NCBI GenBank assembly: GCA_016650435.1
Contig: JAENVT010000482.1
Location: 1-6,981 of the forward strand
Direction: 5' to 3'
Source: Ilumatobacteraceae bacterium
GTDB taxonomy: Bacteria > Actinomycetota > Acidimicrobiia > Acidimicrobiales > Ilumatobacteraceae
Length of the DNA stretch: 6,981 nucleotides
Both the position numbers and the translations under genes were made by a program. A model generated the notes under the pieces. That model saw only the letters and a list, made by a program, of their open reading frames with translations. It made no database searches and was not told the origin of the DNA. Every line of letters begins with the position of its first letter. Position 1 is the stretch's first letter. Positions 2,012-4,722 of the stretch are shown here, piece after piece.

Positions 2012-2029
2012 TCTGTGCGAACGCACAGA
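2012..2029. repeat. Hairpin 4 / near-perfect 18-bp palindrome in the intergenic region
   Basis: tctgtgcg at 2012-2019 and cgcacaga at 2022-2029 are exact reverse complements separated by two bases; as RNA this gives a 7-bp stem with a 4-nt loop. It lies 62 bp downstream of the minus-strand Rid-family gene stop and is the first strong hairpin that transcript would meet, so it may end the minus-strand operon. No T-run follows on either strand, so intrinsic termination is doubtful. Confidence 0.4.
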
Positions 2030-2091: not shown

Positions 2092-2511
2092 CTAGACCTC
2101 GCGTTCGACAACGGCGTCGATCTCGACGACCTGTTCTCGGTATCCGAGGAAGGTCACGCCGAGCAGCGTCGCAGGTGGCACGTTGTTCTGGAAATACGAC
2201 GTCACCTCTCCCCATGCGTCGATCAGGTTCGAGTGCGGACCGACGACGTACACGGTCAACTGGTGAATGTCGGCTTTCGAAAACCCATGATGCGTGATCA
2301 GCGTGAGGAGATTGTCGAGGCACTGCCGAGTTTGCGCGACGGGACCGCCGGGCGCCACGAGAATCGCAGACGAGTCACGAGGAACTTGGCCGGCGATGAA
2401 GAGCCGACCACCAACGCGATCGGCGTATCGGTAGTTCGATGTCTGCGCCAGGCCCGCACCCAGTTCGCCTTCGTTCATCGTTTGGTTCATCGCCCAGAAC
2501 TTACTGTTCAC
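2092..2511 (-). CDS. Rid (YjgF/YER057c/UK114) family protein lacking the canonical RidA arginine
   Basis: A 139-residue soluble protein of the Rid superfamily, trimeric chorismate-mutase-like folds. True RidA members deaminate reactive enamine/imine intermediates. Here NYRYADRVGGRLFIAGQVP (26-44), GGPVAQTRQCLDNLLTLITHHG (55-76), DIHQLTVYVVGP (81-92), VPPATLLGVTFLGY (111-124) and the ending QVVEIDAVV cover the whole domain. By alignment from memory with E. coli RidA, the catalytic Arg105 position is Leu122, with R125 three residues on. It therefore belongs with Rid-like subgroups that lack the imine-deaminase arginine, and the ridA symbol is not justified. The start is unsure: GTG 2511 as given, ATG 2490 or ATG 2478; TAAGTT ends 7 nt before ATG 2490. 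It follows the membrane-protein gene by 32 bp on the same strand and is probably the last gene of that operon. Confidence 0.88.
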   Translation of the reverse strand: MNSKFWAMNQTMNEGELGAGLAQTSNYRYADRVGGRLFIAGQVPRDSSAILVAPGGPVAQTRQCLDNLLTLITHHGFSKADIHQLTVYVVGPHSNLIDAWGEVTSYFQNNVPPATLLGVTFLGYREQVVEIDAVVEREV

Positions 2512-2543: not shown

Positions 2544-2999
2544 CTACTCCACGACAGCGCCGCTATCCGGTGCCACTTGCACTCCCGGAACGGGGAACCG
2601 GTTGCTCACCATGATGAGCGCGATCGGCAGCACGGCGAACAGTGCCAAACCACCGAGGCTGATCGCGATGTCGCTATTCGCCAGCCCGTCGGTGTTGGCG
2701 ATGTGGAACACGAGATGCGGGATCCCGTACAGCAATGACGCAACCGACGCGGCGATGATGGTCGGTCGTGAGAGCGTGATGAAGGCAACGATCAACACCG
2801 CGGCAAGGCCAAGGTTGAGTCCGCCCACGTCGCGTACGAGATGCTCGTTGTACGGGCCGTTGACGCTGACCCAGGCTCGACCCAGTCCTGGGAAGTGGTC
2901 GTAGAACGATCGTGGCGCAAGCTGTGCCCAGACACCGATCTCGAGCGAGACGAGCGCGAGATACGACAGGGCGATGCGCGTCCAACGTTGGTACGTCAT
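2544..2999 (-). CDS. Uncharacterised four-helix integral membrane protein
   Basis: A 151-residue protein with four predicted membrane segments at about 8-28, 57-76, 79-100 and 111-131. Between the first two is a conserved-looking extramembrane stretch, APRSFYDHFPGLGRAWVSV followed by NGPYNEHLVRDVGGLNLG, and helix 3 carries YGIPHLVFH with histidines inside or at the edge of the membrane. I recall similar uncharacterised membrane proteins in actinobacteria but cannot name a function. The start is well fixed: ATG 2999 overlaps the SDR stop as ATGA and follows AAGGAG with a 6-7 nt gap; an earlier in-frame start at 3044 would overlap the SDR gene by 49 bp and adds non-family sequence. Translational coupling to the SDR implies joint expression under the Rrf2 regulator. 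Paired histidines and charged loops would be compatible with a redox or ion role, but that is speculation. Confidence 0.88.
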   Translation of the reverse strand: MTYQRWTRIALSYLALVSLEIGVWAQLAPRSFYDHFPGLGRAWVSVNGPYNEHLVRDVGGLNLGLAAVLIVAFITLSRPTIIAASVASLLYGIPHLVFHIANTDGLANSDIAISLGGLALFAVLPIALIMVSNRFPVPGVQVAPDSGAVVE

Positions 3000-3898
3000 T
3001 GGAGCTCCTTCCATCGGTCGACGCAGTGGATGGTAGGCGACCATGTCCCCACGTCTTGTAGGTGTTGCGAAGTGATGCGATGCGACCTGGCGATGCTCGC
3101 CGTAGCGTCGCCTCCAGCTCGTTCAACAAGGGTCGGTATCGGCCGAAGTCGTGACCGACCGACGACCTCGCCAAGCATGTCGCAGTGCGTCGACCGGCGG
3201 ACTGGATCGGGCTCTGCGACGTTGTACGTGCCAGCGGGTGCTTCGAGCGCGACGATCACCGCTGCAGCAGCGTCGTCGATGTGGATGAACGAGATGTAGC
3301 TGTCCGGGGCCCCCAGCAAAGCGACCAGACCGCGCCTCGCCGCGCCGAAGATGCTCTGCATGTGCGCGCTATCGGGCGCCATGAACATCGCGAATCGCAG
3401 CACGATCCCCGTGCCGCCAGCGGCAGTGACAGACGCAGCCGCCGCTTCGGCATCGACCGTGCTCTGATTGCCCCAGTAGTAGACGCGCTCCCAGCTCTCG
3501 TCGATCCATTGGTCACCGCCGGCGACATATGGAAAGGTGATCGATTCCTGGATCAGGCGGCCGATCCCGGCATCGACGACTGCGCCGGCGATAGCTGCCG
3601 CTGCATCGCGGCGCAGCGTGTCGTTGATGCGCCACGCAGCTTTGCGTACTGCCGATGGCCCGCTTGGAATGTGGGTCGCCAAATGGGCGACACAGTCGTG
3701 ACTTGCGATCGCGGCGCGGATCGCGTCGCGATCGAAGAGATCGACGTGCACGGGCGTTGCTCCAGCAGCACGCGCCGCCGAAGCTTTTGCCTCCGATCGC
3801 ACTACAGCTGTCACTGCGTGCCCGGCACCTACGAGTGCCGGCACCACCCGCCGGCCGAGAACTCCAGTGGCTCCGGTCACGAACACTTTCTGGCTCAC
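2996..3898 (-). CDS. Atypical SDR / NmrA-like NAD(P)-binding protein
   Basis: A 300-residue Rossmann-fold protein of the extended or atypical short-chain dehydrogenase group. The nucleotide-binding motif TGATGVLG (8-15) is intact. VVRSEAKA (32-39) ends strand 2 with a basic residue, which favours NADP. ESITFPYVAGG (118-128) and LRFAMFMAPDS (168-178) are usual SDR segments, and the end, RITSQHLQDVGTWSP (274-288), is like NAD-dependent epimerases. The expected YxxxK is not intact: the tyrosines at 140-141 are followed by W-G-N-Q, so the catalytic lysine is missing. It may therefore be a redox-sensing NmrA-like binder or a divergent oxidoreductase. GTG 3898 is chosen because AGGAGG lies 7 nt before it and it overlaps the regulator stop as GTGA; GTG 3919 is less likely. 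In Streptomyces the RsrR regulator controls an NmrA-type gene, so the pairing is meaningful. Confidence 0.9.
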   Translation of the reverse strand: MSQKVFVTGATGVLGRRVVPALVGAGHAVTAVVRSEAKASAARAAGATPVHVDLFDRDAIRAAIASHDCVAHLATHIPSGPSAVRKAAWRINDTLRRDAAAAIAGAVVDAGIGRLIQESITFPYVAGGDQWIDESWERVYYWGNQSTVDAEAAAASVTAAGGTGIVLRFAMFMAPDSAHMQSIFGAARRGLVALLGAPDSYISFIHIDDAAAAVIVALEAPAGTYNVAEPDPVRRSTHCDMLGEVVGRSRLRPIPTLVERAGGDATASIARSHRITSQHLQDVGTWSPTIHCVDRWKELQ

Positions 3899-4383
3899 TG
3901 CAGCACCTCCTGGAACCACTCGATCGCCTTGGCGATCTGCACGGGATCAACGCTCGTGGCGAGTTCGCCGTTGATGTCGTCGATGGTGACGGCTGCGAGC
4001 TCGGCCCTCCAGGCATCCTCGGCGCGCCACATCGCCCGCGCGATCCCGCACGGACGTGGGTACCGCGGCGCGTCGATAGCGGTCGGGCCCTGTTGGCGAA
4101 TCTCTGTACACCGGAACGCCGGCTCGCTGCCCTCGAGCGCCAGAACTATGTCGAGCAAGCTGATCTTGTTTGCCGGGCGGGCCAAGCGGTAGCCGCCGTT
4201 GCGGCCGGCCACCGCCTCGACGATGCCAGCCTGGGAGAGTTTCTGCAGTTGCTTGACGAGATACGGCGCCGGCACACCGTGGAACTCGGCCAGCCGAGCG
4301 CCCGAAACCGTCAGTGGGTGGGGTACCGCGCCCAGCACGGTGCAGCAATGCACTGTCCACTCGACGCCTTCGCTGAGTCGCAT
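3895..4383 (-). CDS. rsrR: Rrf2-family redox-sensing transcription regulator, RsrR type
   Basis: A 162-residue winged-helix regulator. The DNA-binding domain is canonical Rrf2: LAEFHGVPAPYLVKQLQKLS (31-50), then GIVEAVAGRNGGYRLARPAN (53-72), with the GRNGGYRL wing. The cysteine pattern is not that of IscR or NsrR, which have three. There are only C92 and C112 in the sensor loop (C13 and C14 are elsewhere), while E8, W9 and H12 are present. In S. venezuelae RsrR the [2Fe-2S] cluster is held by Cys90 and Cys110 of one subunit and Glu8 and His12 of the other, with Trp9 close by, so the ligand set matches with the same 20-residue Cys spacing. The likely role is a redox-switch repressor of its own operon. 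The ATG abuts a palindrome and lacks a Shine-Dalgarno, consistent with leaderless translation. The stop overlaps the SDR start. The symbol is by homology of motifs, not a search. Confidence 0.88.
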   Translation of the reverse strand: MRLSEGVEWTVHCCTVLGAVPHPLTVSGARLAEFHGVPAPYLVKQLQKLSQAGIVEAVAGRNGGYRLARPANKISLLDIVLALEGSEPAFRCTEIRQQGPTAIDAPRYPRPCGIARAMWRAEDAWRAELAAVTIDDINGELATSVDPVQIAKAIEWFQEVLQ

Positions 4384-4407
4384 ACTCGGATACTAAGTAT
4401 CCGGGTT
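4383..4407. promoter_or_regulatory. Putative RsrR operator (11-3-11 inverted repeat)
   Basis: The core is a perfect 15-bp palindrome with a single central base, ggatact-a-agtatcc (4388-4402). One more pair, c4387/g4403, extends it to 17 bp, and pairs at 4385/4405 and 4384/4406 extend it further with one mismatch. Read as two 11-nt arms around a 3-bp centre (4383-4393, 4397-4407), 9 of 11 positions pair. That is the 11-3-11 architecture reported for RsrR class 1 sites. It overlaps the -10 and the first transcribed base of the regulator gene, so autorepression is the simple reading. Which protein binds is inferred from position. Confidence 0.65.
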
Positions 4408-4419
4408 ACGGTCGGTCAA
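4390..4419 (-). promoter_or_regulatory. Promoter of the rsrR-SDR-membrane protein operon
   Basis: On the minus strand TTGACC (4419-4414) resembles a -35 element, followed after 18 nt by TAGTAT (4395-4390), a TAnnnT -10. The -10 ends 6 nt before the ATG at 4383, so the predicted transcript starts at the start codon itself and would be leaderless. The -10 lies inside the operator palindrome, so a bound regulator would block it. The promoter occupies the 45-bp gap after the monooxygenase-like gene, which shows that rsrR can be transcribed independently of that gene. Confidence 0.55.
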
Positions 4420-4428
4420 ACAGGACCG

Positions 4429-4722
4429 CTATCCATGCCAGTGGTGCACGATGGAAATCGGTGTCCGCTCGGGCTCCGGCGGCAGGTTGTCGCCGAAGAT
4501 CTCACTCAGCAGACCGTGCACAACTGGGTGCAGACGTTCCTCTGCGAACCGGTTGCAGTCCTCCTCCGACTCCCAGATGTCGAGGTATCGAAGCCCGCCC
4601 TCAGGTCGTTCGAACGCGAGGTGAGTGATGAGACCCTTGGGCAGCTCGTCGCCGAGACCATCGGTGATGCGTTTGTAGAACGCTGCGTCGATCGGCACAT
4701 CTTGAGTGAACGCGAAGGTCAT
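4429..4722 (-). CDS. Small ferredoxin-like (alpha/beta-barrel) protein, antibiotic-biosynthesis-monooxygenase-like
   Basis: A 97-residue soluble protein with no signal peptide. The layout of strand (MTFAFTQDVP), helix (11-25), strand (KGLITHLAFERP, 29-40), strand (GGLRYLDIWES, 42-52), helix (53-75 region) and final strand (ISIVHHWHG, 89-97) suggests a dimeric alpha/beta-barrel domain like the antibiotic biosynthesis monooxygenase or stress-responsive barrel families. 'GLRYxDIWxS' with a following helix starting at E53 is typical of actinobacterial members. Catalytic residues of true cofactor-free monooxygenases cannot be confirmed, so activity is open. The start at ATG 4722 is well supported by AGGAG 8 nt upstream. 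It ends 45 bp before the Rrf2 gene on the same strand and may read through into it. The upstream gap, shared with the divergent serine hydrolase gene, contains a 29-bp inverted repeat. Confidence 0.75.
   Translation of the reverse strand: MTFAFTQDVPIDAAFYKRITDGLGDELPKGLITHLAFERPEGGLRYLDIWESEEDCNRFAEERLHPVVHGLLSEIFGDNLPPEPERTPISIVHHWHG

What the first reader, a model, noticed from the sequence alone, without database searches (positions are those of the whole stretch)
3895..4383. RsrR-type [2Fe-2S] redox regulator with Glu/His/Cys/Cys ligand set outside Streptomyces
The Rrf2 protein has E8, W9, H12, C92 and C112 and lacks the third loop cysteine of IscR/NsrR. In S. venezuelae RsrR the cluster is bound by Cys90, Cys110, Glu8 and His12 with Trp9 beside it; here the Glu-Trp-His positions are identical and the cysteine spacing (20) is the same. 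Few members of this class have been characterised, and this one heads an operon that includes an NmrA-like gene, echoing the known target.
Basis: partly seen in the sequence, partly recalled or inferred. Interest (0 to 1): 0.7.

Follow-up and report, generated by a model that had tools for sequence, protein, structure and literature searches.

The report
RsrR-type iron-sulfur redox repressor, ordinary relative
This gene encodes a close relative of the Streptomyces redox sensor RsrR, with the same four presumed cluster-binding residues and the same kind of DNA operator, at the head of a small oxidoreductase operon; it is a new member of a known regulator class that turns out to occur in several bacterial phyla.

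Summary
ORF 4383-3895(-) encodes a 162-aa Rrf2 protein with E8, W9, H12, C92 and C112 and no third loop cysteine. S. venezuelae RsrR is by far its nearest solved relative (E 1e-43; next 3e-7), and a tree puts both on one side of a 98/98 branch, apart from 18 other Rrf2 proteins.

Independent support: a 23-bp operator (4384-4406) abuts the start codon and matches two published RsrR class 1 sites in core and spacing (16 and 18 of 23 letters). The core recurs upstream of 78 of 81 related genes (shuffled 3.4), but of 3 of 23 other loci.

Two corrections. The class is not a Streptomyces speciality: relatives occur in Actinomycetota, Pseudomonadota and Chloroflexota, and a published network already holds an RsrR cluster. 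The 'NmrA-like' gene is not the known target: it is a different atypical SDR, directly after rsrR at 22 of 80 relatives.

Best reading: a [2Fe-2S] redox switch repressing its own rsrR-SDR-DUF4345(-Rid) operon. Cluster and redox response were not measured.

The parts
3895..4383 (-). rsrR-type gene, 162 aa Rrf2 regulator; presumed cluster ligands E8 and H12 (one subunit), C92 and C112 (other subunit), switch residue W9
4384..4406 (.). operator ACTCGGATA-N5-TATCCGGGT, abutting the ATG; perfect 8-1-8 inverted repeat 4387-4403, core 4388-4402
   Evidence: same architecture as RsrR class 1 EMSA sites printed in PMC5015018, 16/23 and 18/23 identical
4390..4395 (-). putative -10 element TAGTAT, inside the operator, 6 nt before the ATG (leaderless transcript inferred)
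   Evidence: sequence; (motif not specific: see report)
4414..4419 (-). putative -35 element TTGACC, 18 nt from the -10
   Evidence: sequence as printed
2996..3898 (-). atypical SDR / NmrA-like NAD(P)-binding protein; likely GTG start at 3898 overlapping the rsrR stop (GTGA), with AGGAGG at 3906-3911; the mechanical ORF runs to 3919
   Evidence: start choice is inference from the sequence
2544..3044 (-). DUF4345/DoxX-like small protein, third gene of the cassette (Pfam scores below cut-off)
2092..2511 (-). Rid family (Ribonuc_L-PSP) protein, same strand, about 30 nt further on; possible fourth operon gene
   Evidence: a relative also lies in the same order at L001 (1 of 80 loci)

Best explanation
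The gene encodes an RsrR-class Rrf2 repressor of an Ilumatobacteraceae-like actinobacterium. By homology each dimer would hold two [2Fe-2S] clusters, each bound by C92 and C112 of one subunit and E8 and H12 of the other. In the oxidised state it sits on the 23-bp operator that abuts its own start codon and covers a likely -10 element, and blocks transcription of rsrR, the atypical SDR, the DUF4345-like protein and perhaps the Rid protein; when the cluster is reduced, W9 moves and the protein lets go, so the operon is expressed. Shown here: residues, clade, operator and gene order. Inferred: cluster, redox switching, repression, leaderless promoter.
For: Nearest solved structure RsrR 6hsd, E 1.3e-43, against 2.7e-7 for the next Rrf2 protein. 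AF2 model mean pLDDT 90.9; Foldseek ranks 1-11 are all RsrR entries, E 1.2e-16 to 8.3e-15, 48-51% identity; next CymR and IscR from 2.5e-8. Same side of the tree as S. venezuelae RsrR. E8, H12, C92, C112 invariant in 67 of 67 rows of A2 and in 38 of 38 profile-found class loci, of which 27 are new and 11 re-find earlier loci. Operator matches the class 1 probes printed in PMC5015018; its core scores 9-10 of 10 in 78 of 81 upstream regions against 3.4 of 81 after shuffling, and in 20 of the 27 new profile-found loci against 3 of 23 other loci.
Against: No biochemical data. PMC5015018 (passages) describes 630 RsrR sites in S. venezuelae, whereas near-perfect sites in two relatives of the window lie only at rsrR itself, so the biological role may differ. 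7 of the 27 new profile-found class loci lack a good operator core. The 80 loci were found with two patterns, one of which includes the EW motif, so their W9 figure is biased. The -10-like hexamer is also present in 27 of 57 upstream regions whose operator is not at -22..-18.
Confidence: 0.82

Rival explanations
1. It is an RsrR-class protein by descent and binds the cluster, but senses something other than general redox state (for example quinones, electrophiles or NO) to control a dedicated SDR operon.
For: In two relatives the near-perfect operator lies only at rsrR itself, suggesting a local, dedicated circuit; neighbour genes differ between loci: SDR, Sven6562-type NmrA, FAD amine oxidase, CMD, 2-hydroxyacid dehydrogenase, MFS.
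Against: W9 and all ligands of the redox switch are conserved; no sequence mark of another signal was found, though none was searched for specifically.
Confidence: 0.12
2. It is an NsrR/IscR-like regulator that binds a [4Fe-4S] or three-Cys cluster.
For: Same Rrf2 superfamily; weaker NCBIfam matches to RirA, NsrR and IscR models, all far below their cut-offs.
Against: Only two cysteines in the loop; other side of the tree from the other Rrf2 rows; position 108 is Cys in 0 of 120 near homologues.
Confidence: 0.03
3. It is a cluster-free thiol sensor using C13/C14 or C92/C112.
For: C13 and C14 are common (116 and 112 of 120 near homologues); thiol-based Rrf2 sensors exist (SaiR, HypR, named in PMC9218516, passages).
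Against: C13/C14 vary over the 80 loci while E8, H12, C92, C112 do not in 67 of 67 rows; E8 and H12 have no evident role in a thiol switch.
Confidence: 0.03

Closest known systems
RsrR (Sven6563) of Streptomyces venezuelae, PDB 6hsd, 6hse, 6hsm, 6y42
   Same: Fold, E8/W9/H12, two ligand cysteines 20 apart, 55% identity to the 141-residue stretch compared, 23-bp ACTCGGATA-N5-T(A/G)TCCG operator in front of its own gene, same clade
   Different: No third loop Cys (Y108 in place of C106); linked gene is a co-directional atypical SDR plus DUF4345, not the divergent 248-aa NmrA Sven6562; one operator abutting the ATG instead of two in a 107-bp divergent region
Q9 subclade of Rhizobium/Agrobacterium (P0241-P0360; L062, L069, L070, L076, L077)
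   Same: E8, H12, C92, C112 (119 of 120; one has P12) and the operator core
   Different: Switch residue 9 is Gln, not Trp; downstream gene is a CMD-family protein in the locus scanned (L062), with like N-termini at the four others
Y9 sister clade (P0121-P0240), mostly proteobacterial names
   Same: E8, H12, C92, C112 in 120 of 120
   Different: Tyr at 9, longer loop and an extra Cys seven residues after C92 in the rows printed, so it may bind a different cluster; operator core weaker (4 of 10 loci at score 9, none at 10)
NsrR, IscR, RirA, CymR
   Same: Rrf2 fold
   Different: Three-Cys loop or no cluster (recalled and PMC9218516, passages); in the other Rrf2 loci examined helix 1 is mostly D8/Y9/R12, on the other side of the tree

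Membership tests
RsrR class of Rrf2 regulators | Rrf2 winged-helix protein with RsrR as nearest solved relative | tested here: met
RsrR class of Rrf2 regulators | Ligand residues Glu8, His12 and two Cys 20 apart | tested here: met
RsrR class of Rrf2 regulators | Switch residue Trp9 | tested here: met
RsrR class of Rrf2 regulators | Same clade as S. venezuelae RsrR, apart from other Rrf2 proteins | tested here: met
   (98/98; bootstrap not fully settled); without ligand columns (100/98 for the W9/Q9 clade)
RsrR class of Rrf2 regulators | Class 1 operator at its own promoter | tested here: met
   (by sequence; binding not tested)
RsrR class of Rrf2 regulators | [2Fe-2S] cluster bound across the dimer, redox-dependent DNA binding | not testable with these tools
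   needs purified protein; only a monomer could be modelled
RsrR class of Rrf2 regulators | Linked Sven6562-type nmrA (as in S. venezuelae; not a defining mark of the class) | tested here: not met
   a different SDR family instead. Sven6562-type divergent gene at 12 of 80 loci
NsrR/IscR type | Three loop cysteines | tested here: not met

The most novel reading that the evidence does not exclude
The Glu/His/Cys/Cys Rrf2 switch is an old module that carries its own operator core (RGAYA-N5-TRTCY) across at least three phyla and has been put, by turns, in front of different oxidoreductase cassettes; the window shows one such cassette (rsrR-SDR-DUF4345) as a one-operon local circuit. The site was built stepwise: Glu8/His12 came before Trp9, and Trp9 was later replaced by Gln in Rhizobium/Agrobacterium, which would mean a natural RsrR that switches without its tryptophan.
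Probability: 0.4. Interest if true: 0.55.

Novelty: new member of a known kind. Interest (0 to 1): 0.35.

Why it matters
RsrR is described as perhaps the first example of an iron-sulfur cofactor bound by three kinds of side chain (PMC11138216, passage), and its role in vivo is unclear (the S. venezuelae mutant showed no phenotype; PMC5015018, passage). A distant relative with a single, clean operator on a small operon gives a simpler system in which the redox switch and its target can be tested. That E8, H12, C92 and C112 stay fixed in proteins without the third loop cysteine independently supports the crystallographic ligand set, and natural Gln9 and Tyr9 variants offer a direct test of the tryptophan-switch model.

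Tried and rejected
NmrA echo as homology: rejected; window SDR against Sven6562 aligns over 29 residues, plus two shorter matches of no significance. SDR as a classical YxxxK reductase: no Y-x3-K occurs in any of the 28 SDR rows (24 distinct; window plus tblastn segments), while S126 and Y131 are invariant in 28 of 28; its chemistry is left open. PDB sequence search of the SDR gave weak, mixed hits, best E 2.6e-6, cinnamoyl-CoA reductase. ORF 4429-4722(-), upstream of rsrR: no Pfam or NCBIfam family. Leaderless promoter: a TANNNT hexamer at the right place is found in 15 of 24 upstream regions with the operator at -22..-18 (shuffled 3.3 of 24), but also in 27 of 57 others, so it is suggestive only. 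Genome-wide regulon by pattern: near-perfect sites (up to 1 mismatch) counted in five genomes, reversed control pattern in brackets: G001 1 (0), G007 2 (3), G166 0 (2), G148 3 (0), S. venezuelae-like G023 4 (0). The test is insensitive: it misses the rsrR site of G166, whose core is present with other flanks, and finds 4 sites where ChIP gave 14 class 1 peaks. The two further sites in G148 and in G023 were not examined. The structure superposition was loose (rmsd about 3 A), so I make no claim on ligand geometry. Rows left out of the tree: 12 loci named in the script, being repeats or unclear. Y9 sister clade as RsrR-type: not claimed, because of its extra loop cysteine.

Full report
OBSERVATION. 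The ORF at 4383..3895(-) is real and is as described. It has 162 residues, Pfam Rrf2, cysteines only at 13, 14, 92 and 112, and E8, W9, H12. The 120 listed of 3340 homologues at E <= 1e-10 keep E8-W9-H12-C92-C112 in 117 cases; two of the exceptions are N-terminally short records, one has A8. The nearest named sources are Ilumatobacteraceae MAGs at 81 and 84% identity, so the window most likely comes from such an actinobacterium; no genome is held for it.

CLASS. The nearest solved structure is S. venezuelae RsrR (E 1.3e-43); the next Rrf2 protein is at 2.7e-7. The AF2 model (67-row alignment, mean pLDDT 90.9) matches RsrR entries at Foldseek ranks 1-11 (E 1.2e-16 to 8.3e-15) and other Rrf2 proteins from 2.5e-8 on. 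A tree of 109 rows puts the window, 80 related loci and ten further class members, S. venezuelae RsrR among them (91 rows), on one side of a 98/98 branch, against 18 other Rrf2 rows from eight genomes. The tool warns that the bootstrap had not settled and of long branches among the other rows.

LIGANDS. In A2 (67 rows) E8, H12, C92 and C112 are invariant and W9 is present in 90% or more. Loci found by profile give E8, H12, C, C in 38 of 38, W9 in 36 and Q9 in 2; 11 of the 38 re-find earlier loci and 27 are new, 25 with W9 and 2 with Q9. In 23 loci scoring under 115 bits the pair E8+H12 does not occur; the commonest letters are D8, Y9, R12, but 7 have a gap at position 8 and four are doubtful Rrf2 matches. 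The third loop cysteine of S. venezuelae RsrR (C106) is Tyr in the window, and Cys at that place is found in 16 of the 38 class loci: it is dispensable in evolution, as the crystal structure would predict (structure as described in PMC11138216 and PMC9218516, passages; the JACS 2019 paper is not held).

OPERATOR. Next to the start codon lies ACTCGGATACTAAGTATCCGGGT (4384-4406). Of perfect inverted repeats with arms of 8 or more and a spacer of 0-7 the window has two, and this is one of them. It holds the only exact GGAYA-N5-TRTCC in the window. The EMSA probes printed in PMC5015018 for the RsrR sites contain ACTCGGATACCCGATGTCCGAGA and ACTCGGATAGTCTGTGTCCGAGT: same length, core and spacing, 16 and 18 of 23 letters identical. 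Upstream of the window gene and the 80 loci the core RGAYA-N5-TRTCY scores 9 or 10 of 10 in 78 of 81 cases against 3.4 of 81 in shuffled sequence; the strict core GGAYA-N5-TRTCC occurs in 47 of 81 against 0.025. In the profile-found class loci a score of 9 or 10 is reached in 31 of 38 (26 at 10), or 20 of the 27 new ones (16 at 10), against 3 of 23 (none at 10) for the other loci. Seven new class loci therefore lack a good core. The shuffles keep base content only, start codons of the profile-found loci were chosen by rule, and related loci are not independent.

MECHANISM. On the coding strand the window reads TTGACC-N18-TAGTAT-N6-ATG, so the operator covers a plausible -10 element and would overlap the start of a leaderless message; oxidised RsrR bound there would block transcription. 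This promoter is inferred. The rsrR stop and a GTG start of the SDR overlap (GTGA) behind AGGAGG, which points to coupled translation (sequence). Oxidised RsrR binds and reduced RsrR releases DNA in S. venezuelae (PMC5015018, PMC11138216, passages); that the window protein does the same is inference.

NEIGHBOURS. The gene after rsrR is an NAD(P)-binding SDR/NmrA-like protein that is not an orthologue of Sven6562: 29 residues, E 2.6e-4. The same SDR family follows rsrR co-directionally at 22 of 80 loci (Actinomycetota, mostly Acidimicrobiia; Alphaproteobacteria; one Ktedonobacterales; one 'Acidobacteria' MAG); a 23rd, very weak match at L031 was not counted. DUF4345 lies downstream at 14 of 80. 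Sven6562-type genes lie divergent at 12 of 80, and one further relative lies downstream at L031; no locus has both families, not counting weak matches (35-45 bits) of Sven6562 to the SDR itself at five loci. Other loci show FAD amine oxidases, CMD-family, 2-hydroxyacid dehydrogenase or MFS genes (10 proteins scanned). In the genomes of L003 (G001) and L001 (G007) the near-perfect operator occurs only at rsrR itself, which suggests a local circuit, with the limits told under Tried and rejected.

DISTRIBUTION. The class is patchy: 36 of 121 genomes of the genus of a Streptomyces genome at E <= 1e-15 with the RsrR query; 4 of 150 in the family of the Ilumatobacter genome; and at E <= 1e-25 with A2 15 of 289 in the class of a Robiginitomaculum genome (9 of these 15 are of the Y9 or C9 sister type), 9 of 346 in the phylum of a Streptomyces genome (one of them with H9) and 6 of 251 in the phylum of Ktedonobacter. 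In some searches at most 33, 12, 10 and 14 candidates per genome were scored, so the counts are lower bounds. Each count includes the genome used as centre.

POSITION 9. Around the class lies a sister clade with E8, Y9, H12, C, C in 120 of the 120 listed of 1291 homologues, and a Rhizobium/Agrobacterium clade with Q9 in 120 of the 120 listed of 3252 (one of them has P12). In a tree without columns 8, 9, 12, 92 and 112 the W9+Q9 rows form one clade (100/98), the Y9 rows another (96/97), and Q9 is nested inside W9; the branch joining the Y9 and W9/Q9 clades is weak (86/44). With the other Rrf2 rows as outgroup, the simplest reading is that Trp9 is younger than Glu8/His12 and was lost once. The Y9 clade has a further loop cysteine and may bind another cluster.

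PRINT. PMC9218516 (passages) reports RsrRs as network cluster 7 with highly conserved E8, H12, C90, C110 and W9 as the switch; so the class as such is known. Five searches of an open-access library (rows shown 20 of 70, 3 of 3, 20 of 133, 5 of 5, 10 of 10) showed, by titles and abstract starts, no paper on RsrR proteins outside Streptomyces, on the conserved operator or on the SDR cassette; supplements and subscription papers were not read. PMC5015018, PMC9338935, PMC11138216, PMC9218516 and PMC9973013 were seen as passages (the first also as abstract and opening).

VERDICT. A well-supported new member of the RsrR class, with an operator that makes the prediction directly testable; cluster and redox response remain unmeasured.

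Noticed in passing
L062, L069, L070, L076, L077; P0241-P0360: RsrR-type proteins of Rhizobium/Agrobacterium have Gln instead of Trp at the switch position 9, with ligands and operator core kept.
   Followed up: partly
P0121-P0240; L137-L145: A large, mostly proteobacterial Rrf2 clade has E8, Y9, H12 and C92/C112 plus an extra loop Cys in the rows printed; I have no name for it.
   Followed up: partly
L111:651-1394(-): The gene divergent from rsrR in the S. venezuelae-like genome encodes 248 residues with NAD_binding_10/NmrA matches and no HTH family in Pfam, although PMC5015018 calls it a LysR family regulator.
   Followed up: partly
G023:C1:3846033-3846449(-): The S. venezuelae-like genome holds a second RsrR-like match, 55% identical over 1-137; its residues were not read.
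   Followed up: no
window 3895-4383, residues 13-14: A Cys-Cys pair next to His12 is common in near homologues (116 and 112 of 120) though not among the four ligands; role unknown.
   Followed up: no
L008, L009, L012, L014, L022, L028, L032, L033, L038, L050, L057: In these alphaproteobacterial loci the longest ORF after rsrR starts with a like stretch that looks membrane-spanning (LHKLSALVL...VHLGNHL type); the one scanned (L008) had no Pfam match.
   Followed up: no
window 2012-2029: The other perfect arm-8 inverted repeat (TCTGTGCG-AA-CGCACAGA) lies between the converging Rid and GNAT genes, perhaps a terminator.
   Followed up: no
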